A stretch of 64,000 nt of DNA, from the NCBI GenBank assembly GCA_033065855.1, contig JAVXUO010003212.1, positions 1 through 64,000 of the forward strand, written 5' to 3'. This DNA comes from Escallonia rubra. Lineage: Eukaryota > Streptophyta > Magnoliopsida > Escalloniales > Escalloniaceae. A program made the position numbers and the translations under genes. This document shows, piece after piece, positions 9,314 to 57,181 of this stretch (positions are counted from its first letter, which is position 1; each line of letters starts with the position of its first letter). The notes below the pieces were generated by a model that ran no database searches, was not told where the DNA came from, and worked only from the letters and a program-made list of their open reading frames with translations.

Positions 9314-9326
9314 GGTGCTGACAAAG

Positions 9327-17640: not shown

Positions 17641-18502
17641 TAAAATGCTTTCAATGCTAGACCAGCGGATGTGATTTTGGTGGTCGTGGAACTGACATTG
17701 TGATGGCGCACATATGGCAAAAACTGTTTTGTTGTCACCATCTTATTCTTATGGTTAACTAAAAAAATTTGATGGCAAAACAAAAAAACTCTAATTTGAC
17801 TTTGATTTTTCTTTTAGGCCATCAAATCTACCAGACTCTAAATTCAAATTCGGAAATAATTTACATGTTGAGAATGGTATTTGGCACCTCATCTTATCCG
17901 AAAACGTTCTCTACTTGTTTTAGTGATATTTAATAATTTTTAACCAAAGCACGAGTAAACAAACCTAATTTTGGTTTGAACTTAATATCCGGGGTGAAGT
18001 GACTTACGTACTCGATGGGATAGATAGAGATCAAAATCACGTAGTTTTGACCCAAGGGAGGTGACCTAAATTTTGGTCTGTGCTTGTTTAAAATAAATTC
18101 TATAAACCATTTTCATTGAATTAAATGCTGGAAAATTGATTTTTGATTCTTTCATCGACCAAAAGTAGATCGCGGGAAGAGGATCTAATCTAATATAATT
18201 AGAAGGAAAGAAGAAGGCTTACATTTGATCTTGATTGCCTGATTGCATGATTTCATGATGTAAAAATCAATCTAGTCCTAAAAACCAAAAAAACAGAGAT
18301 TCTGGCCCACTAGGGAATGTCATTTTGGCCCTGAAGATGATCTTCGATGGATTTCGTTCTTTGCAAAGTTGTAGCTATTGGAAAAAAAGAATACACAATC
18401 TAAGCTTTTAAATTGCCTAAATTGGATATTGTATGAGCAATTTAGAGTTGAGTAAAGTTCAGATTTGTGCTAGATGCAGAATTTGGAATTTAGGGCTTTT
18501 GG

Positions 18503-18546
18503 AGGCTAATTTGGAGTGGGAGGCTAATTTGGAGTGGGAGGCTAAC
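18503..18546. repeat. 18-bp minisatellite, about 2.4 units
   Basis: The unit AGGCTAATTTGGAGTGGG is repeated at 18503, 18521 and (partial) 18539, inside the LTR-like repeat. The homologous copy near 50430 has one unit. Confidence 0.9.
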
Positions 18547-18855
18547 AAGGTTAAAAGTTTATGACTTCCTCCCCCTAGAATGAATGTTAAGATCTCCATT
18601 TATAGCTTTGAAATCCTCGGAGACTAAGGAAACCACTCTGGGTTCAAAAGGGACCCAAACTCCTACAAATAGTTAATCCCGAGGGTCCTAAGACGGACCT
18701 GAGGCAAAGTGTATCGGCCAGTTTAACAGTAGCTGCTGTGTTGGGAGCGGGCGTTCCGGCCGGTACACTTGATGCAAGACTGTTTGACAGGACTGCATAC
18801 ACATGCTAATGCCGAGAGCTTGGTTCCCCCTCTGAAGTCCGATTTAAGCCTACCT

Positions 18856-19037
18856 CTTTTTTTTTTGTCGAAAAAAGGGTGATAAGGTTTGTCACACCTT
18901 TCGAGCCGGGTAGGACCACATAGCGGCAAAGCTCTCCCTACCAAGTTTTAACGCAGCTGCATTCTCAAGGCTCGAAACCGAGACCTCTGGTTAAGTTAGG
19001 ACAGCCCCATACCAGCTGACCTACACGCTTGGTGGTA
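18856..19037 (-). mobile_element. tRNA-derived SINE with perfect 15-bp target duplication
   Basis: Flanked by GATTTAAGCCTACCT at 18841-18855 and 19038-19052. On the minus strand it carries a pol III A box TAGGTCAGCTGG (19012-19023) and a B-box-like GGTTTCGAGCC (18969-18979), 33 bp apart, and ends in an A-run (T-run 18857-18867 on the plus strand). Length 182 bp. The target duplication and pol III boxes make the call firm; the family resembles plant SINEs but I cannot name it. Confidence 0.93.
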
Positions 19038-19330
19038 GATTTAAGCCTACCTTATACCAACCCAAACCTATGGAAGTAGATATTCACATGGAATTACAAT
19101 CAGTCAAAAATATGAAGTTTAGCTCGATATATTATGGAAATACTAAAGATATATCAAATTCGGAACAAGTTTGGCAATCCATAATTATCCCGATCACTAC
19201 TTGACAAAATTAGCCTCATAATATATCAATGGAAAAATAACTTACAGGTCTTTCTAAGAATGTAAAGCTCATAATTCAATTCTTCATGATGAGTAAATTA
19301 TTATTCAACAAGTAGACTTTTGTGCACGTA

Positions 19331-19640
19331 CACTCAAATTCGACTCTTACTAAGCGTAGGAAATCCAAGCCAAGTATTATCACAATCTAACATTCATGTA
19401 AACATACAATGACATGCTATAACCATAAAAAAAAATGAAATACTGATGAGCAAGTAGTTAAACATTCCAAGTAACCCCAAGATGAATGCGACGATGCAAA
19501 AATGAGGTGTATACAGGCAGACCAGACTACTAGATTTGACCTGATCAGCTACTGTCCAACATAACTAAACTGACTGGACTGAACTCAATATAAGATACAT
19601 CTACAGAAATGGGGTGTTTACAAGTAGGACTCATGCTACC
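19331..19640. repeat. Short dispersed repeat, related to 49140-49356
   Basis: AAAAATGAGGTGTATACAGGCAGACCAGACTACTA at 19498-19532 matches the reverse complement of 49315-49356. A similar inverted motif, AATGGGGTGTTTACAAGTAGGACT, occurs at 19607-19630, which suggests a small MITE. Ends are not resolved. Confidence 0.35.
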
Positions 19641-19927: not shown

Positions 19928-20791
19928 TTAGGTAGAAGTTGGCTGCCCAACAACTGGAGGTGTAGAGCCACATGCTAGATAGCATTCACAAAAGTGATCG
20001 CGAGTCCTCTGGTAAACTAGTGCATTTGCAGTCTTTTGGGAATGTGATTGCAGGATATGAAACTTCGCATGGCGTTATAAGGTCTTCGCAAGCACCATCT
20101 TCAAACAAATAATCCCTTGTTCGATGAGGACAGTAGCATGGTTTCTCCCCTAATACACAGGCATAAGAATGTCACTCACACAAGCACATGCATCTTGAAA
20201 AATGTAAGGGCATGATGATAATCACACTATTAATTTGGACTGCCCACTCCTATTTATGTTTACTGGCATCAACAGTTGACACTGTTTAACCTGTAGCGAC
20301 CAAGTAGAGTGCGCTAGTTCAAATAAAGAGTGGAGTTATCGGTTATTAACATATACTGGCACCGCATTACGTTAGAGGCTACCATTATAAGGTTTTTGAG
20401 GGGCTAAAGTTCAAAAATAAAAATGAATTCCTTTAAAGGTTTCAAAAGTAAGAAAACAAGTTAGCTCAGTGCATTTCTGGTGGTTCAAAATTGTACCATG
20501 CGTTCTTGTTCCTATACCAAATGACCGCAGATAAAAAGACCACTAACGCGTCACACCATGGGTCTAATAAAAACCGTTCACTGTTTTGCAAAACATTGCT
20601 TGCTTTGCGAAATCACTCAGTTTGCTCATTCAGTAGTAACTTTTAGGCCATTTAGCCGTACGTTTTCATCATTGATACGCGAAAGTCGCTAATATTGTAT
20701 GGCGCATTTTAAACCATAAAGTTGGTGTACCTATAGAAGCCTCAAGTAAGCAAAGTAAAAGAATTGCACATAAAATGAATTGCTTCTTCAT
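19928..20791 (-). pseudogene. Cysteine-rich secreted peptide gene D, frameshifted
   Basis: Exon 1, 20791-20731, encodes a signal peptide (MKKQFILCAILLLCLLEASI) and ends at a phase-1 GT donor. Exon 2 starts at 20149 after TTAG and encodes the family core with a Cys-Lys-Cys pair. Compared with gene C, about 4 extra bases near 19993-19997 shift the frame, giving a stop at 19986-19988 before the last three cysteines; homology continues in another frame to 19928. It is either a pseudogene or makes a short peptide without those cysteines. The promoter and splice sites look intact, so loss may be recent. Confidence 0.75.
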
Positions 20792-20866
20792 TTCAATCTC
20801 TCGAAATGATACTGTGTAAGAGGAAATACTTTCTAACAGCCTATGTTGTAAGAGACTCTCTAGAGA

Positions 20867-20879
20867 GCTTATATAGCAC
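20867..20879 (-). promoter_or_regulatory. TATA box of gene D
   Basis: GTGCTATATAAGC on the minus strand, about 80 bp upstream of the ATG at 20791. The adjacent CTCTAGAGAGTCTC is shared with the gene C promoter. Confidence 0.6.
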
Positions 20880-21615
20880 GTTAAAGTTACAATATATATT
20901 ATGGCAATCGGTGGCAAACTGAATGTAGAGTAATCTGTCGTAGATTATGGTAATCAGTTCCAATATCTATTAGTTTCAGTAGTTAAGGAATCTCCAGAAC
21001 TTGTCTTTTTGTCAATATAACTGTTCTTTCTTATTACTGAAATACAATCAGAGACACTTTTATGTTGTAACACCTTTGTAGTGAAGTAAAGCAGAGGATA
21101 CGATGAGCAAAGCAAAGGAAGTGACAGAACGGGAAATGGCATCCTTTCAAAGTTGTATATCAAGGGTTGTGAAATTGTCGAACCATGCTAGTGAGAAGTT
21201 GAGCGTTCTGCTTTTTAAAAGGAAAAAGGGACCAATAATTACACACCACTCTACATTGTTGGCTCGACTCCACTTTTGTCACTGAAGATTTATCCGCGAC
21301 ACTTTATCATGCTTTATGGTTACATATTCTAGACCTTCAGCGGATGAAAGTGGAGTTTAAGCGATAAATAATGGTTTGTGGATACTTCCCTTGATTTTGA
21401 GGATTAGTGCCTCAGCTGCAGTATACTGCTGAAAGACTCGAGCTACCTTTTACCAGAAAGATTAAGAAGACATGTAAAAGGCCCCAACACAAAGGAAATT
21501 GAGTCTGTCCAAGGACAAGGAGTGATGCTAAACTCTTTTTCTTAGATGACCAAAGCAAAAGAAGTCATTATCAACACCTGATGCAGATGGCAGGAGTCAT
21601 TATCAACTGACCATG

Positions 21616-22661
21616 TTAAATAGGAGTTGGAGGCTCAACACCAGCTGGAGGTGTAAAGCCGCATACAACATAGCATTCGCATAGGCGAGACTCCTGAGGT
21701 AAATTAGTGCATTTGCAGTCTCTTGGCATTGAGCTTGCAGGATATGCAACAACGCAGGCCATTACAAGGTCTTCGCATGAACCTTGGAACACATCCTTGG
21801 TACGATTAGGACAATAATATGGTTCTTGCCCTGTTACACAAGCACATATATACATCATTTAAAATGTAAGGAAATAACTTTGGCCTACGTCACTCTAACT
21901 TATTCTTAATGACGATTATAATTTACTGTTGAATGTTTTTTTGCTGCTATCCGGGTTGTAGGAATCTTCCTCCAAGCCCTCATATAGCGACAGTCAATAG
22001 TCTCTAAATGTTTATAGTGACTTTTTTCTTATCATTTTCAGCGACAATTTTTAATAGTATTTGTTAGTGTCACTAAATAAAAGTCACTAGAAACATGTTG
22101 CGACCATTAATTGTCACTGTATAGGGGTTGGAGAAATTCCTTCAGCTTCAGCCTAAGTAGCAGCCAAAATTTTTGTGGTGACCAACTGGAGTATGCTAGT
22201 TCAAATAAAGAGCGAGATTATTCGTTACCAAAGCATATACGTCTACAACTAAGCATATATTAAGACCGCGTAGCATATGAGGCTTCCCTTAATGTACTTC
22301 AACACCTCTTTAAAGGTTTCAAAACTAGAAAAAAATGATATCTCGACATATTTCCTGATGGTTTGAAATGTATCATCCATTCTTGTTTTTATGCCGTTCA
22401 TTGCATTGCAGTACATTGTTGGTTTTTGTAAAATCACCATGTAAGATCATTGATAACAATTTCTCTGCCACTTAGCAGTAAATTTCGAACATTTTGTACT
22501 CGAAAACGGCAAAAATTTATGGTACATTTTAACCCAACCCACCCACTCACCGATAGTGAACAATGGTAAGAAGCTGAAGTTGGTGTACCTGTAGAGGACT
22601 CGAGTAAGCTCAGTAAAAGAATACCGTACACAAGGACTGGGAATGCAAGTCGCTTCTTCAT
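21616..22661 (-). CDS. Secreted eight-cysteine peptide, gene C (defensin-like)
   Basis: Exon 1, 22661-22589, encodes a signal peptide starting MKKRLAFPVLVYGILLL; the donor is ACAG|GTACACC, phase 1. Exon 2, 21830-21616, follows a TGTAACAG acceptor. The joined product is 95 residues. The mature part has eight cysteines spaced C-x11-C-x6-C-x12-C-x-C-x9-C-x-C-x3-C and ends in a short Pro-rich tail (PPAGVEPPTPI). The signal peptide plus compact Cys framework means secretion and disulphide folding; function is unknown. The pattern is not the standard plant defensin one; the C-x-C...C-x-C part recalls Bowman-Birk loops only loosely. Genes A, B and D share exon structure and spacing. All lie on the minus strand. 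Confidence 0.85.
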
Positions 22662-22726
22662 TTTAACCTGTGAGAATTACAAGCAAATATTATCTGGCTG
22701 CTTGTTGGAAAAGACTCTCTAGAGAC

Positions 22727-22740
22727 TTTATATATATATA
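22727..22740 (-). promoter_or_regulatory. TATA box of gene C
   Basis: TATATATATATAAA on the minus strand, about 70 bp upstream of the ATG at 22661, next to the TCTCTAGAGAGTC motif shared with gene D. Confidence 0.6.
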
Positions 22741-22779
22741 GCACTTAAAAGTTGTACTACAGATTATGGTAATCAATTG

Positions 22780-23052
22780 CAATCTCTATATCTATGTTAC
22801 CGTTATCTGTCATCATAATTGCAATCGGTTTTGGATGTTTATTACTATTAGTACTTTATTCCATAGATTCTCCTTTAATTTTATCGAGTGTGATCCCAAG
22901 GTACTGGCGTGGCCTAAAAAGAAAGAGAGTCCATAATTAAAAAGAAAAACTTAATTGCAAAATGACAAAGATAATACGGTGTAACCAACGGGTGATTTGT
23001 AATGGTGAGCCAACTCAGCAGAGACTTTACGAGGCATGGTGGGCTTTTCAAA

Positions 23053-23088
<36 letters not shown>

Positions 23089-23574
23089 CTTAATGGTGGG
23101 CCATCTCAAACCACATCGCCACCACAACAATTCGTAAAAAAAAACAGCCCGCATTTCAAACCGAAGCCACCAAAGCGCAGATCGGCGGCGTGAGGGGGGA
23201 AGGGAGGGAGAGCATTGGTCGACGATGGCCGCTACAGGGGATAGGCAGAGGGAAATCGTTCATTCATTCTGGCGATTCTGGCAGTGGCCTGGAGGAGAGG
23301 GATTGAAGGGGACGGCACGTGGCGAGAAGGAGGGGGCGGCGACAGGAGTGGGCAGAAAGAGGGAAAGGGGCTTGGTTCAATTAGGACTTTAGAGGTTTTT
23401 TTTTTTCATTCATTTTGAAATTAGGCATTATAGTAATGTTAGGGATATTTTTGGTATTTCATGTCAAAATTTAGCCAGATTTAATTATTGATAGATGAAG
23501 GAGACCAATTGTTAAAGTTAATACCCGAGGGGATCAACCCGCAAATCTGAAATACTCATTTGTCATTTCATCTT
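22780..23574. repeat. Gene-free stretch with (TA)n and possible small transposon
   Basis: A (TA)n microsatellite runs at about 23058-23087. A G-rich segment (23160-23390) follows. The outer parts AAAATGACAAAGATAATACGG (22959 on) and, reversed, GAAATGACAAATGAGTATTTC (near 23570) look like weak terminal inverted repeats, which would make 22955-23575 a MITE-like element. No target duplication was confirmed. Confidence 0.3.
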
Positions 23575-24654
23575 AAAAATAAGTTATGAAGTGTTAATTT
23601 TAAAATTTATTTTTGGTAAAATTAATTCGATAACAACAAATACATTGAAAATGAATGCTAAAAGTGTTGCAGAGTAATGGTAATTAAACCATTAAAAACC
23701 TATCATTAAAATGGGGAGCCCAACAGCTATTTTATTTTAGGATAAATAAAAATGGTGCAATAGTTCATATCAAGCTCGGGAAAGTGTAAGTTGAATCTCT
23801 TGCACTTGTCATTTCCCCCTTAAGCTTGCGAATGTAATTAACACTCAAACACAAGTAGTTAAGATGCCAAAGAGATCTCGTATATATTTTCTTAAAGTTT
23901 CTTTTAACGACTCAATGTGGCATAGGACAAGTGTGGCCCGAAAAATATAAGCATGTACAAAATAAATCTTTTCAATGCGGTACTCAAGGATATAAAGGGC
24001 TTTTAAAACTTTTTCAAAACTTTTTTTGCTACTAAAAAGGAGTTTCATTTTTTTTTTAAATTCTCTAACAGTGAGAACAACACAAAACTTTGCTGTTTTT
24101 TGAGGATTAAACGGTTCGAATGTTTCTCAAAAGCAAAACTTGAAATCCCAAAAAGTGCTAAAGGGAGATCTATGTTTACTATATATCTAGTATCTATTAT
24201 TAGTAATGTTGTTGCAGTCATTTTCATGAAATAATAAACGAGTTCTTCGCCCGTCATTATGTAAATCTAATTTTGGCAACCTCTCCAAGGAACAATTGTC
24301 CCATGCAATGTTTTTAAATTCCTTTTCAATAGAATTTTATTACTAACATTTGCCAAAAGGGTACCTTGCCGAATCTAAAAGAGAGAAGGTCCATTTTAGC
24401 CTTTCAATTTCTTTTTTGTTTTCATTTGTATACAAGTAAAAGAGATTTGATTGACAAGACCTAAAGTAACACTATTGCATAAAAGGGTAATTGTTCAAAG
24501 TATATTCATTTAATTTTTTTCTTTTCCCATAACAAAAGAGTAGAAGGAACAGAACAAAAGTAAGACGGTCATCATGGATTGAGAATGAGTAAATGAAAAA
24601 ACAGTGCCTGTTTATTCCAATAGAAGAGGGTTACAATAGGAACCGGCTACTGTG

Positions 24655-24759
24655 CTGGAGGCAATGAGCCACAAACTACGCTACATGCACAGAGGCGATG
24701 GTCTAGTGGGCTGGAGGCAATGAGCCACAAACCACACTACATGCACAGAGGCGATGGTC
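24655..24759. repeat. 49-bp repeat at the 3' end of gene A
   Basis: 24655-24703 and 24711-24759 are near-identical (49 bp, 7-bp spacer). The inner copy is the coding end of gene A; the outer lies beyond its stop codon. Copy B of the gene has the unit once. Confidence 0.9.
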
Positions 24760-25090
24760 GGGAGGCTGAGGAGTGCATACACAATCTTTTGCCATCGCGC
24801 TTGCAGGCAACGAGGCACCACATGTAATGAAATCGCTACAAGAAGCTCTTTGCACTTCCTTGTGAGGGCAATAGTTTGATCCTTGACCTGTTTCATGAAG
24901 AGACGAAAAAGTTAAAAGAGAAACGAAATAGTTATAAACCTTGGTGAATGCTTCTCAAATGTTCGAATATCAAAGTGAAATACTAAGGACACTAGAAAGT
25001 AAGAGTAGTAATACCTTCTACGGGGTTAAGCATGAACAACAACATAGACACCGCGCACAGGGTGATTACGAAGAAGACTTGTTTCTCCAT
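24703..25090 (-). CDS. Secreted eight-cysteine peptide, gene A (defensin-like)
   Basis: Exon 1, 25090-25015, encodes MEKQVFFVITLCAVSMLLFM plus a few residues ending PVEG, with donor GAAG|GTATTAC in phase 1. Exon 2, 24887-24703, follows a GAAACAG acceptor. The product is 86 residues, the mature part being about 60. Cysteine spacing is C-x9-C-x5-C-x12-C-x-C-x9-C-x-C-x3-C, with DCVCTPQPPDHRLCACSVVC at the core. It is a paralogue of gene B at 36010-35597 by segmental duplication. The last residues (PPAH) and stop differ from B because a 49-bp duplication altered the 3' end. Function unknown; secretion is inferred from the signal peptide. Confidence 0.85.
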
Positions 25091-25161
25091 CTCTCTCTTC
25101 TCACCAAAAGTATCCGACTTTCTGTGTGTTTCTCTTGGTTGTCCCATATGGTACGTAGCGA

Positions 25162-25173
25162 GTATTTATAAGG
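25162..25173 (-). promoter_or_regulatory. TATA box of gene A
   Basis: CCTTATAAATAC on the minus strand, about 75 bp upstream of the ATG at 25090. The surrounding ACTCGCTACGTACC is conserved in gene B. Confidence 0.6.
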
Positions 25174-25797
25174 CAAAAAATAATATGCACACTTCACTTT
25201 TCACACGAACCGGTCCACAATTTCTTCTACTCGGTCATAATCCATAATTGAAGATATGTACGTTAAAGTTAAAAATAGATAAAAATAAATTTGTTGCCTT
25301 CTTGGGTATCAAAAACACTATCTATCTAGAATTGAAAGATTGAGTGAATCGTATGATCTTAATTGAACAGCTCATCAATAAAGGAATTAGTCTAGATTTA
25401 ACTTGAATTTATATGGACTCCTGATCGAATTCCGTCCCTGTGGACTGGAAAAGGAATTAAAGTACTTCTCTACTAACCATTTATTTTATTTCCTTCTATT
25501 ATGTTTTTACTAATGAAGAAGCTAGCTGTTCAATCCTTTTTCATTATCCTTTCAGTAGTTTCTATACAGACTATTTAATCCATGGATGCTTAATTACTTG
25601 TTTCTGCTCGTGCATTCAAGATATCTATAGGTTATTAAGGGATATAGCACCCTTAGGACGAAGCCATTTTAACTTTTCAATATTGCCCATGACGGCAATG
25701 GTGTTTTATAAGTTAGTTATTTTTTTCTTATTTTCTCAGCACCTCTTCACAAAATAATGGCAAGTTATTAGTTGGTTAGTACTCTTTTTCAATGTAA

Positions 25798-26445
25798 AAG
25801 GTTTCTAAAAATCATGGGTGTTATGAGTTTTAAAAAAAGGTTAGGCCAAATTAGAAACCTTTTTTGGCTAAATTTAAATATGTTGTGGCCAAAGAACTTA
25901 AAAGATCACTAATGCATTTTCAGTGACAAAAAACATGAGTTTAAGTCTTTAACCAAGTGGGTGTGGATCTAGCCCCCCCAGTGTATAAAAAGATCTCAAT
26001 GGATTAAATGACAAAATATTTTTCCTTAAAAATATGCTTTTTGACTTATAAGGTTTACAAATATTAAGGTTGTTTTTTTTTTACTTTACAAAGGGTGAGG
26101 CTAAATTACAAATTTTTTATTAAATTTAAGCGTTTTGTCGCTGAATAGGTTAAAAGTACACTAATGCATCTTTTAGTAACAAAAGAGTATGAACTTAATC
26201 AAAATGACTGTGGATCTAGCCTCACCATATAAAAAATGGTCCCCGTCAGTAAAATGGCTAAATTGTTTTTTTTAAAATACATTTTTAAAATTTACAAGGT
26301 TTACAGACGTGAAAGGTGTTTTTGACTTTTATAAGGGTGAGGCAAAATTAGAGTGCCTTTTGCTAAATTTTAATATTTTGTTAATGTTGACAAAATAGTA
26401 TCAACTCAACCAAAACGGGACGGAATTAACCCCACCGTGTAACTT
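25798..26445. repeat. About 250-bp tandem repeat, 2.6 copies
   Basis: Units start near 25798, 26050 and 26296 at AAGGTTT; each then has a GGTGAGGC(T)AAATTA phrase (25839, 26094, 26336) and, in the two full units, TCACTAATGCAT or ACACTAATGCAT. The units are well diverged, so the array is old. Confidence 0.8.
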
Positions 26446-27147
26446 TGATCTTATTCTATGGCTATCCATCTTTAAACAAAACACATCACAACCTAACATT
26501 AAATCTTACCTATATCAAAGTCGGTAAAAAGAACATCTTAATTACCTTTACTTGTAGGAAACATGTCTTAAGTTCAGGTATTAGCATGTTCCTTTTTTAT
26601 ATCATTTTTAGGTGGACCAGCTAATGCACTATACTAACTTTTGCACATGGCTGCAAACCTAAACATATTGACTAGGCCTTCTTTTTTCAACTTTCACGAT
26701 GAATTTATGTGTTGTTTGTTCTTTGATAAAATAATTGGTTGTTATCATTTTCTTAACTCGCAAGATTACAATCTTATCATTCGGTGAATGACCTGTGGTA
26801 GAATATATTTTTGATGAACTTTTGTAGAGTTTGTATTTATATAATAAATGTAGCGAGTATGTATATAGGATGAAAAAGTTTAAGTGTGTGAACGATATTA
26901 GGATTACTTTGTTTATTATCATTTTCTCACGTTTAATCATGCCATCCATTTCGTAGTATACGTTTCAAGATGACGCCCATATACAGACACATATTGGCTT
27001 TTTAGATAAGTAGGTGTAATATTATCTTAATTTCGTACTAAAAATAAAAATCTTGTGGCAAGTATATGCTAAATTACATGCAAAACTATTCCTATCATTT
27101 AGTACTAAGATCAACAAGGTCATGTTAAGTAAAAACAAAATACGTAT
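26446..27147. other. AT-rich intergenic DNA, nothing recognised
   Basis: The one longer frame (26659-26949, minus, 96 residues) is Lys/Ile/Tyr-rich and looks like AT-rich noise. Confidence 0.5.
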
Positions 27148-27150
27148 TTA

Positions 27151-27819
27151 GGGGCCGTTTGACAGGGTTTTTTTTTGCTCTTTTTTTTTCAGTTTTGAAA
27201 ATTGGAAAAAATAGGAGTGTTTGGTACCACTTTTTTTTTTCAATTTAAAAAGTTGTTTTTTAAATTGTAGAGTAAAAAAAAAAGAGGAAAAAACTCTTTT
27301 CGTTTTCACTTTAAATTTTTTTTTGAGACCTCCACCACAACTCACCCACCGGGCCCATCGTCGCCCGGCAGCCACCTCCGGCCGCCGGTAGCCACCACCG
27401 GGCGGCGGTGGGCGGTGGCCACCACCGCTGGCCGGAGGCCACCTCTGGCCGCCGACAACCACCACCGGGTGGCAGGTGGCCTCCGGCCGCCGGCAACCAC
27501 CGCCGGGCGACAGCCACCACCGTCGGCAGTCACCTCCGACAGCCACCGCCGCCCGACAGCCACAGTCGCTCGCCGACAGCCACTGTCGGCGACAATCACC
27601 GCCGGCCACCACCACCGTCGACCACCACTACGCCCCACCATCGCCACCACAAACCACCACAAAAAAAGTCAAAATAAAAAGGGTTACCAAACACCAAAAA
27701 AAAAAAAAACTAAAAAAATACACAGGGTTATCAAACACCCACTTGTTTTTTTAAAAAAAAAAAATTTGAGCTGCTCTTTAAAACCTGAAGACCAAAAAAC
27801 AAATTTGTCAAAAAGAGCC
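27151..27819. mobile_element. Tourist-like MITE with GC-rich triplet core
   Basis: TTA target duplication at 27148-27150 and 27820-27822. Ends are GGGGCCGTTTGAC and, reversed, GGCTCTTTTTGAC, as in PIF/Harbinger-type MITEs; inner arms share GTGTTTGGTA / GTGTTTGATAACC. The core, about 27325-27665, is a degenerate CCACC/GCCGG repeat of high GC content, open in several frames only because of composition. Confidence 0.7.
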
Positions 27820-28255
27820 TTAGAGTACACTGTCAAAAGAGCTTAAAGTACACTATTAACTCTTTGTAGGAATAAAAGATAATAACACTAAGATCAAGCA
27901 TAGTTATAGACAAATTGTATATGAAATTTAAAACTTAAGATAGAAAAAAAAATTAAACAGACAGGCTCTATACTTCAATTTTCAAACATGATATACATAA
28001 AAACCGTAATAGGATTAGATCATTACCAAAAGAAAAGAAATTTGGGGGGTGGGGGAAGGAGGGCTATTTGACGTACCCCAACGATCTATCGCTACAAGAG
28101 ACGGCATCACTCTACAGAAAAAAAGATGATGGATAACTAGTGATACCAAAAGTTCTAAATGATAATATTTTCAACTTTAGTAGAGATGCTTATAGGAAAA
28201 TTGACGAAAACTTTAGAAAGATCGAAAATTTGGGAAGATCTTTGAAACTTGTAAT

Positions 28256-29337
28256 TAGGGCTGTATACGAACCGAGTTCGAGCCGAACTTGGCCGTGTTT
28301 GTGTTCGTATAGCTCAGGTCACGTTCGAACTCGGCTCGAGTTCCGAGTTCTTATAAGTGACTGAAATGTTCGTTTGAACTCGGTTCGTGAAACCACCCAA
28401 AAGTTCGGGCTCGGCTCAGTTCGTTCATTTAACCTATACAAACCGAACTCGAGCATCGTAAACTTGTTCTTTTTCTAGTTCAACAAAACCAAAAAAAACC
28501 CAGATCTGAAACTTCAAATATTCAAACCAGTCAAAGTTGGAAAAAAAACAAAAGAATTAACATGAAAAATGACAGAAAGGTTGGTCTCGCAGATTGTTGT
28601 TGACCAAATCGCGAGAAATGCAGCGATTCAATAGTTTTTGAAGAGCCTCTGGATCTTTACGAAGAACCGAACCACGTTGGGAAGTGCCTGCCACGTTGTG
28701 ATGGTTTGTGCGTGAGTAGACTCTGGGCACGTTCGTTGTCGAGGGAGGCGATGCCTTGCTGGTTGCGCCGCTGAGCTAGGGAGGCGCCGTGACTGTTGTG
28801 TGTTGGTGTGTGTGCGTGACAAAGAAAGAGAGAGGGAGTGTTTGACGCGAGAGAGAGAAGAGACATTCTGAAAATGAAAAGGAGAAGACGGCTGCGGCCA
28901 AAACTAAGGTGCGGTCAGAACTAAATGAGGTAGGTTTGGGAGAATAAGTGCATTAGGGTTTGGGGTTTTTTTTTTGGACTTGGGCTTGGGCTCAGTATAG
29001 TTTGGGCTTGGCTTATATTTTGGTTTATAAGTGGGCTTAGATCTTTTAGCTAATTTTATTAATTTTAGGTTATCAAGTTTTCTAAGTTTATTTTACATAG
29101 ATATATTTATAATTATGTATGTCTTACTTATAATAGTATTAATTTATTATACGAACACTATATGTTCACGAACACAATTCTGAACATTTTTAAATGTTCA
29201 TGTTCTGTTCGTTTAATAAACGAGTTCTAAAAAATTATTCATGTTTTGTTCGTATAATATACAAACGAACATGAACGAGCTTTTTAGGGAACGAACTACG
29301 AGCTGTTCGTGAACAACTCTGTTCATTTACAGCCCTA
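28256..29337. mobile_element. Non-autonomous hAT element, 1.08 kb
   Basis: Terminal inverted repeats begin TAGGGCTGTA at both ends and continue imperfectly with GAACCGAG/GAACAGAG-type motifs. An 8-bp target duplication, CTTGTAAT (28248-28255) and CTTGTAAC (29338-29345), has one mismatch. No transposase is seen; the interior has repeated GTTCG/CGAAC motifs. Confidence 0.85.
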
Positions 29338-29345
29338 CTTGTAAC

Positions 29346-31667
29346 TACTAGATTTGTTGCTCAAGGCAGTGAGTTCTTATATGTGTCATGTTAGATCTCT
29401 TGAGTTCATACAATTCTTGGTTTCAACCATGCAACATTCAAAATCCTAACTGCTTCTATTTTATAAAATTTGTTATATATTTATTAATTGCAACTCCTTC
29501 CTGTCAGACATTTTATTTTCTACGATACTTTTTAGGCTACAAATTTTGAACTTTTTAATATCACTTAATTATAATTCAAGTTTCTTCTCGGTTTCAATTC
29601 TTATACTTATATACGTGTCACATAAATGTATTACAAAAAATTGGACAACTCCAATACATACGCTTCACATTATATTTTATGTGCGTCAAATTGTCTTTAA
29701 AACACTTTCCTTACTTTTGTTACTGCAATGTCATTCTTGTAATATTTGGTGAGAATTAAATATTTATAGAAGATGTTTGAAATTACAATGTCATTGTACC
29801 ATCAGTAACAAGGTATTACATGGAACAGTCAAGATTAGTAACACATATAGGTGGTAATGGACATTAGCAATTCGCATTTGAAAGTAAGACACATGTTTTC
29901 TTCAATGATATTTTCATTCTTCGAGTCTTTGATTAGAATTGTCAATTAACTTACTTATTATTATTTAATTAAAATAATTAGCCTAATTATTTATGATTAT
30001 GTTTTTTTATTAGTGTCTATAACCTTTTTATTTCGAATCACTATTTTTGCGAACAAAGCTCGTAATTCTTACTAGTATAAGAAAATAGGTTTGAGCACGG
30101 GCCATGTGTGAACTAGTCACACTCTTGAGACAATTCCCGCCCCTTTGAATAAAAACTTACTTGTTAGCCCTATGGTTAGATAACATAATCTTACATCTAG
30201 TTTTGATGATAACAACACATTGATTATATTCTAATATGTTCTTTGAATGGACCCTTAGTGACTATACACATACACACTCATGAAGACACATTTGAGAAGT
30301 TAAATATGTGCTTGGATTAAAGTTAAAGGAGTTTAAAGGTATAGTGAGCATGTTATTGAAGTTTTATCAAGTCCAATGTCAAAGAGTAACAAAGAATGTA
30401 TACGCTAAGTTACCTTCAATTATGATAGATCTTTGCTATTATATAACTAGTCTTGGTTTGATGCTTGGATTGAAAAATATGGCTTAAAATGACCTTAGGA
30501 CACATTGTGCATTGCATGTGAGTTCATGACTTTCACACAAGTGTGTTTCTTGAAAATGAATGAACTTTGGATCTTACTCATACTTTTATAAAAAATGTTT
30601 TTGGAGCTAATATTTTCATACTTTGATAAACATTTTCATTAGATTTTCAACATAAAAAAGGGCACTTCAATCCGCTTTCTCTAGAGAACGTTACGTCAAA
30701 AATAATAAAGGGGTTTCGTGAGACAGCAGATTGGTTGTAGGGTAATACAGTCACCCGCATTGTTGGACTTTCAGTTCCAACGGCTATTTTGGAGAAAAAT
30801 ACCTCATTAGCTATTTTGGAGGAATACAGTTAACTGCATTGCAAAAACTGTCAACTGCATTAGCCGTTTTGTCACATTTAATGCCTAGAACGGTTATATT
30901 TCACATCCTCCCAATATAAATGGTTTGGGGCTTTGTCATACACCATGAAAACCACATTCTAACCCTCGAAATATTAGAGAAATATCAAGGATCATGATTG
31001 AACTTTTCTCTCTTCATCTTCATGATTTTACATCATCAAACGAAGCATCTTTGTAAGTTATTTTTTGATTAAGAGTGAGCATTGTTCAAGTCATCAATTC
31101 TCTATTGTACTAGAGTTTCATTTGTGACTTATTTCCTTTCAAGAGGATTTCTGTGTACACAATTGATCGTTGTAAAAGAATTATAATCTCAAGGCTTGGA
31201 TTTATCAAGTCTCGAGTGAGTTTCGTGGATTCAAGACTTGTGCTTGGTATGGAGATATCACCAACGATGGTAAGGGTTTTGATCTTGACGCGGAAGAAGA
31301 TTGTTGCTAGTGAATTCTAGTGCCTTTACAAGGGACTTCCTTGAAGGTGTAGATGTAGGCTTGAAAGTAGTTCAAGTCAAACCATTTAAATATCGTTGTC
31401 AAGTATTTCTTATTCAATATCTTTACTACCCATTAATTTTCCCCCTTCCCCTTTTAGGGTTGTTTTTATTGGTACGAAGTAATGTTTTGACGTTGACGTG
31501 CTGCCTCAATATTCCCATAATTTAGGTTTAGACAATCATGAAAAAGTATATGATATAAAGCTTAACTCTACATTAAGGGGAAAAAAACCTTAGAATGGTA
31601 AAAAAAATGCTACTTTTATATGTGAATAAGATCGAAGGCTATAGTTAAACGCAAATATGGCCATTGA
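29346..31667. other. Intergenic with a possible copia-type LTR fragment
   Basis: No gene. From TGTTAGCCCTATGG (30162) to about 31460 the layout (TTTGATGATAACAACA near the start, CAATATAAATGG TATA-like motif at about 30912, long leader-like stretch) resembles LTRs of large copia elements. No matching second LTR, no clear target duplication and no 3' end could be fixed. Confidence 0.3.
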
Positions 31668-31847
31668 AAATCAGTTAAAAAGTGTTAATTATTAAATTTA
31701 CTTCTGGTAAATAAATTGGTAATAAAAATTTGACCATCAAAATTGAAGGCTAAAACTACTGGTGGATAATGGTAATTAAACCGTGAAACCCACCATAAAA
31801 TAGGTAGCCTAACCGCTAACTTTTTAAGTATAAAGGAGGTGTAACAG

Positions 31848-34540
31848 TGTAACGACCCGAAAATCCGAAACTTTAACACCCCAAACTCCTGGAGCGTTAA
31901 AATAATCACTACTTAATGACATAAAAATCTCGGTTCAAATAACCAACATACAATACTTATCTCAATACTTCTAACCAATACAATCCCTCAATTTCATTAA
32001 CATGTATGATGATAAATAAAAGGGACTTAAGCTCTCTACCGAGCGAGTTAAATAGTGTTTACCCACACAGGGATTCTCATGAGCAATGCTATAACTTAAA
32101 TCAACTTCTCTCGCTCTGCTCTAATCTATGCTTAGGTACCTATTACTAATTACTACATTAAGAAAGTAAGTCAAAGTAGAGTGAGCTTTTGAGAGCTCAG
32201 CAAGGTCGCTCAAAGTTCAATAAAGGGATACAAACAATTTACAATTTATTTCAATGATAAATTTTTGAGGAATTTCCAAATGAATACAGATAGTTCGATG
32301 ACAATATGGGGAAGAATTTCAACTCAACCTCTTCAATCAGATATCAAATAATCATTTTAAATCAGATTCAATAGATTCAGATGATATTGACATGATCACA
32401 GGGTAACTAACCGATGAGCAAAGTCATACAGGCGATGTCGGGTAGCACTTAGTAAGGCCACACAGGCAATGCTCACTATCACAAACTATATATGCATATG
32501 TACACTGGTTATTCCATCAAGGTACTAGCCCACAACAATACATACTAATTCCTCTAATGCACACCAACACCCGCCAAAACACACAAATGCAGAATCTCAT
32601 GTCAATATTCAGAAGAGTAATATGCGCTAATTCAACATATAATTCAATGCTCGAATAAACAAAGCGAATGAGCATTAATATGAGTTTCACTGAACCTTTA
32701 AGGCTCAACCCAAGGTTTCAAAGGCAATAATTCTCAATTCAAAACATAACAGAGTCCAAAGAAATTTGATAACTAATGAGAAAAATAAGTTAATTTGATG
32801 AATTGAGTTTCGGATAGGAATCCATTACCTCGATCCAAGTTATACGCGCTGCCAAGCAACCTCGTTCAAATCCTTTGATTTAACCTCATAAAGTATGAAC
32901 CTGATGCTAATTTCTTTAACGTTGCTTACTTTAACACTCTCAACACAACCTAGATCGAAACGGGTCCACTTACAGTCAACTTAACCGATAATCTTATACT
33001 CTCTTTAAGGCATTATGATACCCCAAAATTCATAATAATTCCTTATAAAATACTTTTATAGCTTACAACATTATAAAAAGTTAAATTATGAATTTTTTGA
33101 ATATTTTCGAATTAAAATCTTCTTCAAATACAAGATAAGCCCAAAATATCCATTAATATTTCTAGCTCAAATCAAAGTCCCACAATTTTATTAATAGAGT
33201 CACAATATATAAGGAAAATATTGAAACTGAAATTGGGATTTAAAAAGTACCAAAACCATTTTAAAATCATTTGTTTCGCTAACTCAAGTGCGATATGGAT
33301 AATAGTACCAAATTAACTCAAAAATTTATGAAACTAAAACCTCTTTAAAATCATCACAACAACCCAGCATTTCCCTCACAAAGAACTCCAAACCCCCCCC
33401 CCCCACCCCCCCACCGCTCGCCGCCACCCCACCCCCACCCCCCACCCCCCACCCCCCCCCCCCCCCCCCCCTCTCCCTTCCTCCCTTTACACTCACTCTA
33501 ATACAATCAAAACACTCCCACTTCTCACACAAAAACACCCACACTCAAACCATTTCATACACCCACTGACCCGCAGTGGGTCTTCTTCTTAATTCAACAC
33601 ACTCTCACACACCAACATTGCACGCACACACAACCTGCGCACACATTAAACACATCCCCCCTCTCTTGCACACAATTTAAGACCCACATACGACCACCTG
33701 CACACAGCCGTGCACAACCGCACATGGCTGCTCCATTTCAGCCCTTTCTTCACGTAAATACGGCAGCCACTATGGCTGCCCTTACCATGTCCCCCACAGT
33801 TGCTGCTATTCCCTGCCACAAGGCTACACCTCGCACGATCACGTAAACAAACACGGAGGCCACATGGCTGCCCTCTTCCCAAACACTCGCTCACGGTCAC
33901 AATTTACACACATATATTCTCTATGTAATAGATTTATTCGAGAAAGAGAAGGGTGAGAGCCCTTATCGGAGATGGGTTCTCTTCGCCGGATTCCGTCAAC
34001 GAGCAGCTTCTCTTCTTCTCTTTCTCTCCCTTTTTCTCTCTTTTCGCGATGTGTGTGTGTGACCGAATGAGAAAAGGTTTTGTGAGTGTGTGACCGAATG
34101 AGAAAAGGTTTTCCTTCCAAATTGGTTAGCCCAAATTTCTCCCTAATTACCCTCCTTTGTTCCCTCTTTTTCAAAGTTATAAAGTTGACATTATTTTTAA
34201 AATAAAATCAGATTTTGTTGTGATCTTTTATTTATCCATTAGTCCCATTTTAAATTTTAATTTTTTTAACGTAATCCCTCAACTTATTAATTTCTTATTG
34301 TACCCCGCTTCAAAAAATTATTGCTAAAAGTTGCCGATAAAATTCGGTCACGCTAATTATCCCTAAAGACTCCAATTGATATCACTTATAACAACTGTCG
34401 TTAATTTACAACTTTTGGTTCTAAAAAATTATCGCTAAAGATCATAAACTATAATGCTCACTAAATCGTTACTAAAGATCCGATGAATAGTCAGCTAAGA
34501 TTTTTATCATAAAATCAGCCTCAGGTTTTGGAGTACTACA
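31848..34540. mobile_element. LTR-like insertion of 2.7 kb, candidate solo LTR
   Basis: It begins TGTAACGACCCG and ends GTACTACA (TG...CA). It is flanked by AACAG (31843-31847) and AATAG (34541-34545); the empty site in copy A reads AATAG at 23759-23763, supporting a 5-bp target duplication. No coding domain is visible. It includes a C-rich tract (33391-33472) and CA/TC-rich blocks. A large solo LTR is the best fit; a non-autonomous element is possible. Confidence 0.6.
33391..33472. repeat. Poly-C tract
   Basis: Long runs of C broken by single A or CG bases; the minus strand is G-run DNA able to form quadruplexes. The glycine-rich frame over it is compositional. Confidence 0.9.
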
Positions 34541-35596
34541 AATAGTTCATATCAGGCTCGGGAAGTATAATGTGTATCTCTCGCACTTGTCAATTCCCCT
34601 TTAAGCGTGCAAGTATATAATACTCAAGTACAAGCAATTATTGTGACACCAAAGAGGTCTCGCATATACGCTCCTCAAGATTTCCTTAAAGGTTTTAATG
34701 TAGTATGGGACATGTGTTTCCATAAAAATATAAGTATGTGATAAAGCGAAGTCTTTTCAATGTGTGATTAAAGGATATTATGGGGTTTTGCAAAACCCTC
34801 AAAACGACTATTCCAACTAAAAAGGAGAATGTCCTGTTAAAATCCTCAAACAATAACAACACAAAATTGTTGCTATTTTCGAAAAATTAAACGGTTCGAA
34901 TTGTTTCTCTTAAGCAAAAACTTGAAATTGCTAGAAGTGTTAGAGGGTTCATTCTCAAGATCTGTGTTCACTATATTTTGCAATGTTGCAATCGTTTTCA
35001 CGAAACAGATGGATATGTTAATTTTTTCTAGAGATAATCATGTTCTTCACACAATATATGTAAAACTATTTTTGGCACCCTCTCCAAAGAAAATTTGTCT
35101 GGTGTAATGTTCTAAGTTTCCCTTTCAAAAGAATTTTACTTCTAACACTTGCCAAAAGGTCCATTTTACATGGAAAGACATAACTCAATTCTTCATGCAA
35201 AATGTAATTCATTGGTGTACTTTCTAAGAAGTATGCCTCATCGACAGTTTTGATAAGATCTAAATGTAGCCTTTCAATTTCTTTTAATTTCAATTCTATA
35301 CAAGTAAAAGAGATTTAATTGATAAGATCTAAAGTAAAACAACTACATAAAAGGGTAATTGTTGAAAGTATATATGAGGTCACATCACCACATCTCAGAG
35401 TCAGATGATGTTCATATCTTTTTTCTTTTTCTTTTTTTTTGGCACAGCTAAAGAGTTAAAGATCGGAATTAAAGCAACACAGTCATCATGGAATTGAGAA
35501 TAATTAAGCAAATAAAAAGATGTGGTTGTTTATTCCAACAAAACACGATTACAATCGGAAACGTTTTTGCAATAGAGGTATCATAAGTTTTTGCAA

Positions 35597-36010
35597 TCAA
35601 GAAAATATCTTTAGGTCTGGTCTATCGACGACTGGAGGCAATGAGCCACAAACCACACTACATGCACAGAGGCGATGATTGCGAGGCTGGGGAGTGCATA
35701 CACAATCTTTTGGTGCGGAGCGTGCAGGCAGTGAGGCACCACATGTGATAATATCGCTACAAGAACCATCTTGCACTTCCTTGTGAGGGCAATAGTTTGG
35801 TGCTTGACCTGTTTCGTGAAGAGAAGAAAAAGAAAAAGAAAAAGAAAATATAGTTATATCAACCTTGGCGAATGCTTCTCAAATGTTTCAAGATCTAAGT
35901 ATTATACTAGTAAACTAGAAAGTAAGAGTAGTAATACCTTCTACGGGGTTAAGCAAGAACAAAATAGACATCGCGCACATGGTGATTACGAAGAAGACTT
36001 GTTTCTCCAT
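35597..36010 (-). CDS. Secreted eight-cysteine peptide, gene B (defensin-like)
   Basis: Exon 1, 36010-35938, encodes MEKQVFFVITMCAMSILFLL and NPVEG, with donor GAAG|GTATTAC in phase 1. Exon 2, 35808-35597, follows a CGAAACAG acceptor. The product is 94 residues. Cysteine spacing is the same as gene A (C-x9-C-x5-C-x12-C-x-C-x9-C-x-C-x3-C), with most substitutions in the loops (ASAMAKD becomes RSAPKD). The C-terminus runs on as PPVVDRPDLKIFS, longer than in A. Reading frame, splice sites and TATA box are all intact despite the 2.7-kb insertion upstream of the duplicated block, so both copies are probably expressed genes. Confidence 0.85.
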
Positions 36011-36074
36011 ATCTCTCTTCTCACCAAAAGTGTTTTTTGTGTTTCTCTTGGTTGTCCCATATGGTACGTAGCGA

Positions 36075-36086
36075 GTATTTATATGG
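36075..36086 (-). promoter_or_regulatory. TATA box of gene B
   Basis: CCATATAAATAC on the minus strand, about 70 bp upstream of the ATG at 36010; the flanking ACTCGCTACGTACC is as in gene A. Confidence 0.6.
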
Positions 36087-36693
36087 CAAAAATAATGCGC
36101 TCACTTTACTTTTCACACGAAACTCTCGACAACTTCTTCTAGTCAATCATAATCCATAATTCAAAGTGCCTTTAAGTTAATAATAGAAACAATAAATTTG
36201 TTGCCTTCTTAGGTATCAAAAACACTATCTATGGAGAATTGAAAGATTTAGTGAATAGTGTCATCTTAATTAAACAGCTCATCAATAATGGAAATAATTT
36301 AGAACTACTTTGAATTATAATTTCATTCAATTCGCGTTTGTGGACTCCTGAATTCAATCCATGTGGACAGAAAAAGGAATTAAAGTACTTATCTTCTAAC
36401 CATTTACTTTACTTCCTTAATTATCTATTTAATAATGAAGAAACAAGTGACTATTCAAAACTTTTTCATTATTCTTTCTAATTTTCTTTTTCTAGACTAT
36501 TTAATCCTGATTGGATGCTTAGTTGTGTCTGTTTGTGCATTCAAGATATCTGTTAAGGGCGAGCACCCTTAGGGTGAAGCCTTTTTGAGTTTTCAATATT
36601 GCCCATGACAGCAATGATGTTCTACATGTTAGTAATTCTTTTATTATTGTCTCAGCACCTCTTCACAAATAATGGCAAGTTATTAGTTGGTTT

Positions 36694-56400: not shown

Positions 56401-57181
56401 ATTACTGTAAGTCGACCATTATAAAGTACTGGAGCCCTTTCATAATTTCTCTCCTTTGACTTTTGGCAACTTCTCAGGATAGAATTCGAACAGCTAACGC
56501 TGAACTCAACTCGTATTGCAAGTACAAACTAAATAAGTTTCTTTGTAACCGAGTCAAAATTACGATAACGACGATGCATGAAGTCAATGCCACGAATTAA
56601 AATCGTATCCTAAGTATTCGCAAAATGTCAAAAGTGACCAAAATTAGAATACAGAGGGAGTTACAAAGGTTTCATCTCGTACCTATTTGGCCGGAGACAA
56701 GGCCAATGCACAATTCGGCTGTGGAATACGCCACGTTGAGCGAAATCAGCACGAACAACTGCTTCATCGGCCTATTGCCCGATCTCACAACCCTAAACAC
56801 CGACAACATATGCAACAAAACCGAAAATCTACTAACCAAACCATCTCCACTACCAGAAAACGACGACGTCCGGTCCCGCTCCGACCAAATGCTTTCAAGT
56901 CCGTCCTGTTGCGGATAAATAGCCGGCGAGATGTCGATCGTCGAGGTAGTACGGGAAAGGAAAGGCTTCTTTAGCGAATCGTTGGAGACTATGGAGATTG
57001 GCGTGTGAGGTGGAGGTGGCTGTTCGGATTGGTGGAACGAGGGCTGGCGGTGGAACGCGAACCGACGATCGCTGTTGCCGGAGAGTTCGAAACCGGCGTT
57101 CCACGGCAGAGGCGAATCGAGCTCGCGTTTCCGGTGAGGGGATCGCGGATCGAACCGACCGGGAGCACTCGGATTGTCCAT
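44458..57181 (-). CDS. MTP5: MTP5-like cation diffusion facilitator (zinc transporter)
   Basis: Ten exons on the minus strand: 57181-56683, 56260-56152, 55811-55772, 54151-54075, 51333-51245, 47882-47813, 46389-46351, 46218-46068, 44831-44742, 44559-44458. All introns are GT-AG; the joined frame is 1266 nt, 421 residues. Residues 1-130 are a polar Ser/Pro-rich N-terminus; membrane segments follow from about 143 (LFVLISLNVAYSTAELCIGL), with SDAFHLTFG at 170-178, FTNALFLLFMSFSIAIEALH, and HVLAD at 287-291. The C-terminal cytosolic domain has WELVPGHVVGSLSLQ. This matches Arabidopsis MTP5, which works with MTP12 at the Golgi in zinc loading of the secretory pathway. The H-x3-D metal site is intact at 287/291 but reads H-x3-G at 174/178, as expected if this subunit is the non-transporting partner. 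Introns hold several transposons. Confidence 0.93.
44957..46040 (+). mobile_element. Non-LTR retroelement in MTP5 intron 8
   Basis: Perfect 14-bp target duplication AAATAAACAAAAAG at 44943-44956 and 46041-46054. It ends in an A-rich tail (CCAAAAAAAAATAAAT), starts CT-rich, and has a GC-rich middle (CACCGCGGCCGCCCCACC near 45018). Length 1084 bp. No RT is seen, so it is a non-autonomous LINE-like element or an internally deleted LINE. The right target duplication ends 13 nt inside the exon 8 donor. Confidence 0.85.
46573..47740. mobile_element. Foldback (MITE-like) element in MTP5 intron 6
   Basis: Long imperfect terminal inverted repeats: GGGGGCTTATCCAGAAATAG at 46573 and, reversed from 47740, GGGGGCTGATCCATATTTTG; both contain TTTTATCTAGCTGATC and CGCCCCTCTTTTGGGC further in. 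The core is GGT/GTG-rich. No target duplication could be defined, so the superfamily is open. Confidence 0.75.
47883..49929 (-). other. MTP5 intron 5, 3' part
   Basis: Holds no exon. A short dispersed repeat at about 49140-49356 (CAGTTTATATGTGTTGGGCC, GTCTGCTTGTAAACACCTCA) matches 19498-19640 inverted. Confidence 0.5.
49930..51060 (+). repeat. Decayed LTR-like repeat, copy 2, in MTP5 intron 5
   Basis: Same family as 17880-19330 but on the plus strand. It has a TATA-like GCTATAAATTGAGG at about 50367 followed by a leader with GTTAGCCTCCCACTCCAAA. No SINE is present at the matching site. Ends are approximate; no partner LTR. Confidence 0.6.
52209..53484. mobile_element. Tourist-like MITE with GGT-repeat core
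   Basis: TTA target duplication at 52206-52208 and 53485-53487. Ends CGGTCCGTTTGGAACC and, reversed, GAGTGTGTTTGGAACC; the arms continue with GGATTTGGATTTC / GGAATTTCATTTC motifs. The core is a triplet repeat (next entry). It lies inside the TRIM-like element. Confidence 0.82.
52437..53215. repeat. Degenerate (GGT/GGC/AGT)n triplet array
   Basis: About 780 bp of GGTGGTGGC and AGTGGTGGC-type triplets. Open frames in all phases (Val/Ala-, Pro- or His-rich) come from the repeat and are not genes. Confidence 0.95.

What the first reader, a model, noticed from the sequence alone, without database searches (positions are those of the whole stretch)
19928..36010. Cluster of two-exon secreted eight-cysteine peptide genes
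Four related minus-strand genes (three intact, one broken) have a signal-peptide exon, a phase-1 intron and a single mature exon with spacing C-x9/11-C-x5/6-C-x12-C-x-C-x9-C-x-C-x3-C. This does not match the usual plant defensin pattern. The genes are too small and too split to show as long open frames, so they are easily missed by annotation. Clustered, duplicated, fast-changing cysteine-rich peptides are typical of defence or reproductive signalling, but the role here is unknown.
Basis: partly seen in the sequence, partly recalled or inferred. Interest (0 to 1): 0.85.

Follow-up and report, generated by a model that had tools for sequence, protein, structure and literature searches.

The report
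SCR-like secreted cysteine-rich peptide cluster
A plant that is probably not a cabbage relative carries one small cluster of split genes for secreted eight-cysteine peptides of the SCR-like family, best known for pollen-coat signals in the cabbage family; their own role is untested.

Summary
Four minus-strand two-exon genes lie at 36010-19928: D, C and B are intact; A has a frameshift in exon 2. Each has a signal-like exon, a phase-1 GT-AG intron and one mature exon. The intact copies share C-x9/11-C-x5/6-C-x12-C-x-C-x9-C-x-C-x3-C.

The family is Pfam SCRL (PF06876), the group of the Brassica pollen ligand SCR/SP11. B scores 30.8 bits and D 28.3 (cut-off 23); C falls short at 21.2; truncated A has no hit. 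None of 10 cysteine-fixed shuffles matched SCRL.

Searches of the 566-Mb genome with D and B found only these four genes and one duplicated tail, all on this contig (lower bounds). Plastid relics argue against a Brassicaceae host.

Best reading: a small SCR-like family, probably outside Brassicaceae, encoding secreted disulfide-rich ligands, most likely anther or pollen-coat signals. That role is inferred: no expression data, an unusable structure model (pLDDT 39), and no S-domain receptor place listed on the contig. Calling it a self-incompatibility locus is not justified. New member of a known kind.

The parts
35597..36010 (-). Gene D, intact: signal-like exon 36010-35938, 129-bp intron, mature exon 35808-35597; 94 aa, eight cysteines in the mature part
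   Evidence: SCRL 28.3 bits, over the cut-off of 23
24703..25090 (-). Gene C, intact: signal-like exon 25090-25015, 127-bp intron, mature exon 24887-24703; 86 aa, shortened tail
   Evidence: SCRL 21.2 bits, below the cut-off
24650..24718 (-). Partial tandem duplicate of the 3' end of the gene C domain; overlaps the stop region
   Evidence: 26.4 bits to residues 39-61 of D mature part; repeat visible
21616..22661 (-). Gene B, intact: signal-like exon 22661-22589, 758-bp intron, mature exon 21830-21616; 95 aa
   Evidence: SCRL 30.8 bits, over the cut-off
19928..20791 (-). Gene A, broken: signal-like exon 20791-20731, 581-bp intron, exon 2 from 20149, frameshift between C5 and C6, first stop at 19986; one extra cysteine just before C1
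   Evidence: 51% and 58% identity to D and B mature parts; no Pfam hit for the truncated product
31664..36692 (-). Duplicated block that holds D, interrupted by about 2.7 kb of other DNA (31835-34540)
   Evidence: self-comparison: 35267-36692 with 24397-25777 (77%), 34541-35159 with 23759-24360 (71%), 31664-31834 with 23573-23746 (73%)
23573..25777 (-). Matching duplicated block that holds C

Best explanation
The cluster encodes a small SCR-like (SCRL, PF06876) family of secreted peptides in a plant that is probably outside Brassicaceae. Shown by sequence: signal-like exon, phase-1 intron, one mature exon, eight cysteines in the SCR order C-C-C-CxC-CxC-C, an SCRL profile match over the cut-off in two of four genes, local duplication, one broken copy. 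Inferred: the precursor enters the secretory path, is cut near the Gln that opens the mature part, and folds with disulfides 1-8, 2-5, 3-6, 4-7 as SP11 does. The loops, which vary while the cysteines stay, would then form the surface that binds a cell-surface receptor. By analogy with Brassicaceae SCRLs, the likeliest place is anther tapetum and pollen coat and the likeliest task a pollen-stigma signal. I put about 0.9 on SCRL-family genes, 0.45 on an anther or pollen signal, and under 0.1 on self-recognition; the confidence given is for the anther/pollen-signal reading as a whole.
For: SCRL is the only Pfam family listed at E up to 10 for each of the 3 intact peptides. 0 of 10 cysteine-fixed shuffles match it. 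Cysteine order as in printed SCR/SCRL (PMC9856046 table passage). Glycine between C1 and C2 and aromatic residue between C3 and C4, kept in most SCR/SP11 (PMC6355930 passage; PMC3493532 passage), are both present in B and A. B and D differ at 35 of 67 aligned mature residues but at no cysteine. In Arabidopsis 15 SCRL genes are specific to mature anthers, and 34 SCRLs were found in pollen coats of three Brassicaceae species (PMC9856046 passages).
Against: C is below the SCRL cut-off and truncated A has no hit; without signal peptide D is at 22.9, just below the cut-off of 23, and C at 16.6. Loops C2-C3, C3-C4 and C5-C6 are shorter than in printed SCRLs, and C1-C2 in B is longer. D lacks the aromatic residue; C lacks both it and the glycine (sequences). 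The structure model is unusable, no solved structure matches convincingly, and there is no expression or receptor evidence. Pollen expression in this host is pure analogy.
Confidence: 0.45

Rival explanations
1. They are defence peptides: secreted cysteine-rich proteins with a defensin-like scaffold that act on microbes or pests directly, with no plant receptor.
For: Small secreted-looking peptides in a tandem cluster with drifting loops. SCRL group CRP0830 genes are down-regulated during pistil infection as well as pollination, which led authors to suggest a protective role (PMC9856046 and PMC5731061 passages).
Against: The family is SCRL rather than defensin; SCRLs in print are mainly anther and pollen-coat proteins. 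Down-regulation on infection is not the usual sign of a defence gene.
Confidence: 0.25
2. They are signal peptides of another kind, for example pistil-, ovule- or seed-expressed ligands, or root signals, on the same scaffold.
For: Cysteine-rich ligands in plants serve many reproductive and developmental tasks (PMC13033167 passages). Nothing in the sequence fixes the tissue.
Against: SCRLs with known expression are mostly from anthers (PMC9856046 passages).
Confidence: 0.2
3. The cluster is a decaying relic: genes that lost their role and drift, with a broken copy and a truncated one on the way out.
For: One of four copies is frameshifted and C has a duplicated, shortened tail; the C-D mature exon diverges about as much as intron and upstream DNA.
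Against: Three copies keep open frames, splice signals and eight cysteines; B and D differ at 35 of 67 aligned residues with no cysteine lost (chance about 0.0016); the C-D signal exon is 94.5% identical. For C-D alone, cysteine retention is not telling (chance 0.12).
Confidence: 0.1

Closest known systems
SCRL family (S-locus cysteine-rich-like; Pfam PF06876; CRP0830/CRP0860) of Arabidopsis and Brassica
   Same: Profile match over the cut-off for B and D; eight cysteines in the same order, two exons, tandem copies; printed precursors 73-108 aa, here 86-95
   Different: Three loops shorter than the printed ranges, C1-C2 of 11 in B; host probably not Brassicaceae; four genes against 28 known SCRLs in A. 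thaliana
SCR/SP11, pollen determinant of Brassica self-incompatibility
   Same: Cysteine order; glycine before C2 and aromatic between C3 and C4 in B and A
   Different: No S-domain receptor place listed on the contig; allelic diversity unknown; D and C lack one or both hallmark residues
SCRL of the Leavenworthia S locus (with Lal2)
   Same: Two-exon, eight-cysteine SCR-like gene (PMC3653793 passages)
   Different: There it lies 2-10 kb from a receptor gene; here none was found on the contig
AB2 of Ipomoea trifida (Convolvulaceae), candidate male determinant
   Same: Small secreted peptide with eight cysteines outside Brassicaceae (PMC13033167 passage)
   Different: Sequence and spacing were not available, so not compared
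Plant defensins and PCP-A/LCR peptides
   Same: Secreted, eight cysteines; two exons are common among plant defensin genes (PMC3653793 passage)
   Different: PCP-A/DEFL/LCR have CXXXC between C3 and C4 (PMC9856046 passage); here 12 residues lie there

Membership tests
SCRL (Pfam PF06876) | Profile score at or above the curated cut-off of 23 bits | tested here: met
   B 30.8 and D 28.3 over it; C 21.2 below; truncated A no hit. So met by 2 of 4 genes; the others are placed through homology
SCRL / SCR | Eight cysteines in the order C-C-C-CxC-CxC-C | tested here: met
   3 of 3 intact genes against the printed pattern (PMC9856046 passage); broken A reaches only C5 in frame
SCRL subgroup CRP0830 | Printed loop lengths CX(9-10)CX(7-10)CX(13-23)CXCX(10-27)CXCX(3-7)C, ranges pooled over three species | tested here: not met
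   Here 9/11, 5/6, 12, 9, 3; not filed under this subgroup
SCR/SP11 | Glycine between C1 and C2 and aromatic residue between C3 and C4 (kept in most SCR/SP11) | tested here: inconclusive
   B and A both, D glycine only, C neither (sequences; criterion)
SCRL / SCR | Two exons, the first for the signal peptide | tested here: met
   4 of 4 genes; printed for Leavenworthia SCRL
SCR/SP11 | Disulfides 1-8, 2-5, 3-6, 4-7 and defensin-like fold | tested here: inconclusive
   Model of D has mean pLDDT 39.2; B was never modelled
SCR/SP11 | Tight linkage to an S-domain receptor kinase gene | tested here: inconclusive
   0 of 149 listed PF00954 places on C1880; 150 of 171 candidates scored; the contig ends about 20 kb beyond gene A
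SCRL / SCR | Expression in anther tapetum, presence in pollen coat | not testable with these tools
   No transcript or protein data for this plant
Plant defensin / PCP-A / LCR | CXXXC between C3 and C4 | tested here: not met
   12 residues between C3 and C4 (pattern); no defensin family listed at E up to 10
PCP-B and nsLTP | Adjacent CC pair in the pattern | tested here: not met
   No CC in any of the 3 intact mature peptides; patterns from PMC9856046 passage

The most novel reading that the evidence does not exclude
The cluster is, or descends from, the pollen-side ligand set of a pollen-stigma recognition system outside Brassicaceae, built from the same SCR-like peptide stock that Brassicaceae recruited for self-incompatibility. 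SCR would then be a re-used older eudicot pollen signal rather than a family-specific invention.
Probability: 0.08. Interest if true: 0.85.

Novelty: new member of a known kind. Interest (0 to 1): 0.42.

Why it matters
An earlier comparison placed many LCR and SCRL genes among genes with no detectable similarity outside Brassicaceae, naming poplar, Medicago, papaya and grapevine (PMC2829037 passages). [quoted passage not shown] A compact cluster in which two genes pass the curated SCRL cut-off, in a genome that is probably not Brassicaceae, gives a concrete starting point for asking where SCR came from and what SCR-like peptides did before self-incompatibility recruited one.

Tried and rejected
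Bowman-Birk-type inhibitor (suggested to me by the CxCT...CxC stretch; pattern recalled): spacing differs, and Pfam lists no such hit at E up to 10.

S-locus beside a receptor kinase: no S-domain-like frame seen by eye among the open frames listed for the window (110 aa or more) and the rest of C1880 (130 aa or more), and 0 of 149 listed PF00954 places on C1880. One place lies on C1876. Whether contig numbers follow chromosome order is a guess; even then it could be hundreds of kilobases away (contig lengths). Not used.

The weak SCRL place on C822 (21.9 bits, below cut-off, one internal stop) has three cysteines in the matched stretch as translated and is taken as chance.

Solved structures: the profile of the mature peptides found only two antibody chains, E 0.12 and 1.2; rejected. 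NCBIfam: 0 of 3 peptides with a hit. AlphaFold2 on D gave pLDDT 39.2, so no fold search was run. A second model (B first) was never accepted. Genome counts for PF07333 and PF00304 did not complete. In the shuffle control, 3 of 10 shuffles gave weak, below-cut-off hits to other families.

My first genome pattern search used a poorly chosen pattern; its 60 places, many of them copies of one repeated sequence, have no bearing, and loci L001-L008 were not used. The script stopped with an error after the C-D part; the A-B part was rerun.
Full report
Observation. The window is bases 1-64000 of contig C1880 (218,873 bp) of a 566-Mb assembly. Reading the minus strand and splicing in a script gives four genes: D 36010-35597, C 25090-24703, B 22661-21616, A 20791 to about 19928. 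In 4 of 4, exon 1 codes for a hydrophobic, signal-like peptide (judged by eye), ends in phase 1 at a GT donor, and is followed by an AG acceptor and one exon with the mature peptide. D, C and B are open to the stop (94, 86, 95 aa). A is broken by a frameshift between C5 and C6 and stops early; the lost part is still readable in another frame. Introns are 129, 127, 758 and 581 bp. A relaxed version of it hits 3 places in the window, 0 in 100 simulated windows and 0 in the other 154,873 bases of the contig.

How the cluster grew. C and D sit in duplicated blocks: 24397-25777 matches 35267-36692 at 77% over 1470 columns, with two further matching stretches; the D block is interrupted by about 2.7 kb of other DNA. 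Between C and D, exon 1 is 94.5% identical, 160 bp of promoter 88%, intron 83%, mature exon 85%, far upstream 83%, downstream 73%. So the mature exon has drifted about as fast as non-coding DNA while the signal exon is kept. A Nei-Gojobori-type dN/dS for the C-D mature part is 0.63 (17.2 nonsynonymous, 7.8 synonymous differences) and 0.81 for the whole; in the signal part all 5 differences are nonsynonymous. Counts are small and positive selection is not shown. A and B are an older pair: exons 74% and 76%, intron 59%, flanks 60-65%. B and D differ at 35 of 67 aligned mature residues but at none of the eight cysteines (chance about 0.0016); for C-D the same test is not telling (0.12). The 3' end of gene C has a partial tandem duplicate.

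How many copies. Genome searches with the mature exon of D (5 places) and of B (4 places) returned only these four genes and the partial tail, all on C1880; the tool states that counts are lower bounds. A search with the SCRL profile returned D (24.7 bits), B (21.4) and a weak place on C822 (21.9), which I take as chance.

Family. Pfam lists one family for each intact peptide at E up to 10: PF06876, SCRL, 'Plant self-incompatibility response'. B scores 30.8 bits (E 3.3e-7), D 28.3 (E 2.1e-6), C 21.2 (E 3.3e-4); the curated cut-off is 23; truncated A has no hit. Mature parts alone give B 26.7, D 22.9, C 16.6. In 10 shuffles with cysteines fixed (5 of B, 5 of D) SCRL was never listed; 3 gave weak hits to other families. 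The cysteine order is the printed SCR/SCRL one; pooled over three species in a table passage of PMC9856046 it reads CX(9-10)CX(7-10)CX(13-23)CXCX(10-27)CXCX(3-7)C. Three loops here are shorter, and C1-C2 is 11 in B. Two further residues kept in most SCR/SP11, a glycine between C1 and C2 and an aromatic residue between C3 and C4 (PMC6355930 passage; PMC3493532 passage), are both present in B and A; D has the glycine only; C has neither. I file B and D as SCRL by the family's own cut-off, C and A through homology to them, and none under subgroup CRP0830, whose printed loop lengths are not met. Defensin/PCP-A/LCR, PCP-B and lipid transfer patterns are not met.

Host. A plastid-derived stretch of the same genome (L033) carries an rpoC2 piece that scores 320.5 bits against chain 8w9z, 283.1 against 8qma and 272.0 against 8xzv. 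From memory these are tobacco, white mustard and spinach; the tool names no species, and a paper search for the codes found nothing relevant. Over 165 columns identity is 144 to 8w9z and 131 to 8qma, which between them share 126. A Brassicaceae plastid should be nearly identical to white mustard. An rbcL piece from the same stretch scores best with chains I recall as tobacco (612 bits), then pea (610), with the one I recall as Arabidopsis, 5iu0, at 600; these margins are small. The host is thus probably outside Brassicaceae and may be an asterid. Both pieces are nuclear copies, so the evidence is indirect, and the species is unknown.

What it probably does. In Brassicaceae, 15 A. thaliana SCRL genes were specific to mature anthers and 34 SCRLs were found in the pollen coats of three species (PMC9856046 passages). 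SCR/SP11 is the pollen ligand of the receptor kinase SRK, with disulfides 1-8, 2-5, 3-6, 4-7 in most variants (PMC10624595 passages; PMC7530648 passages). By analogy I propose secreted, disulfide-braced ligands shown on the pollen coat and read by a receptor on the stigma. The signal-like exon, cysteine frame and family are shown by sequence; expression, fold, receptor and role are inferred. Defence is the main rival: CRP0830 genes are down-regulated in infected pistils, which authors took as a hint of a protective role.

Not a self-incompatibility locus on present evidence. The genome has at least 149 S-domain places (150 of 171 candidates scored), none of the listed ones on C1880, and none was seen by eye among the open frames listed. 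The contig ends about 20 kb beyond gene A, so that side is unseen. Polymorphism and expression are unknown. PMC3653793 (passages) describes a Leavenworthia S locus with an SCRL gene about 2-10 kb from its receptor gene, which shows what would have to be found.

What failed. The model of D from a three-sequence alignment has mean pLDDT 39.2 and says nothing; PMC10624595 (passage) reports difficulty with SP11 in the unmodified AlphaFold2 framework and used curated alignments. No solved structure matched convincingly by sequence.

Novelty. SCR-like genes outside Brassicaceae have been mentioned (cotton, cacao, Solanum pennellii; PMC8774079 passages), while an earlier comparison counted LCR/SCRL genes among Brassicaceae-specific genes (PMC2829037 passages). 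My paper searches on SCRL and SCR-like genes covered an open-licence library only, and their listings showed no description of this cluster; they cannot show that none exists, and no public annotation of this genome was at hand. I rate it a new member of a known kind, of moderate interest because of host and family rather than any demonstrated function.

Noticed in passing
window 56672-57208; contig C1880 about 110-112 kb, 165 kb and 198 kb: Frames that look, by eye and from memory, like a metal tolerance protein, actin, FAD2 desaturase and a CCCH/KH zinc finger protein, an order that I recall from Arabidopsis At3g12100-At3g12130. Frames; Pfam gave no hit for the 56.7-kb piece, the others were not searched.
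   Followed up: no
window 18157-19532 and 49316-50786: Three stretches of one block (70-77% identity) recur in inverted order on either side of the peptide cluster; nature unknown.
   Followed up: no
window 15641-17629 and 2292-2621: Remains of a non-LTR element (RVT_1, zf-RVT) and a copia-type element (RVT_2) on the minus strand.
   Followed up: partly
L033 (G000:C1981, around 93.5 kb): A mosaic nuclear copy of plastid DNA with rpoC2 and rbcL pieces next to each other, some frames still long and open.
   Followed up: partly
G000 contigs C1968-C1971, C2300, C1658, C922, C1698: Dense clusters of S-domain receptor-like genes (PF00954), several on consecutively numbered contigs.
   Followed up: no
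window 9228-10154: Two plus-strand exon-like frames that recall NCA1 (RING/TPR catalase chaperone, from memory); Pfam gave no hit for either piece.
   Followed up: partly
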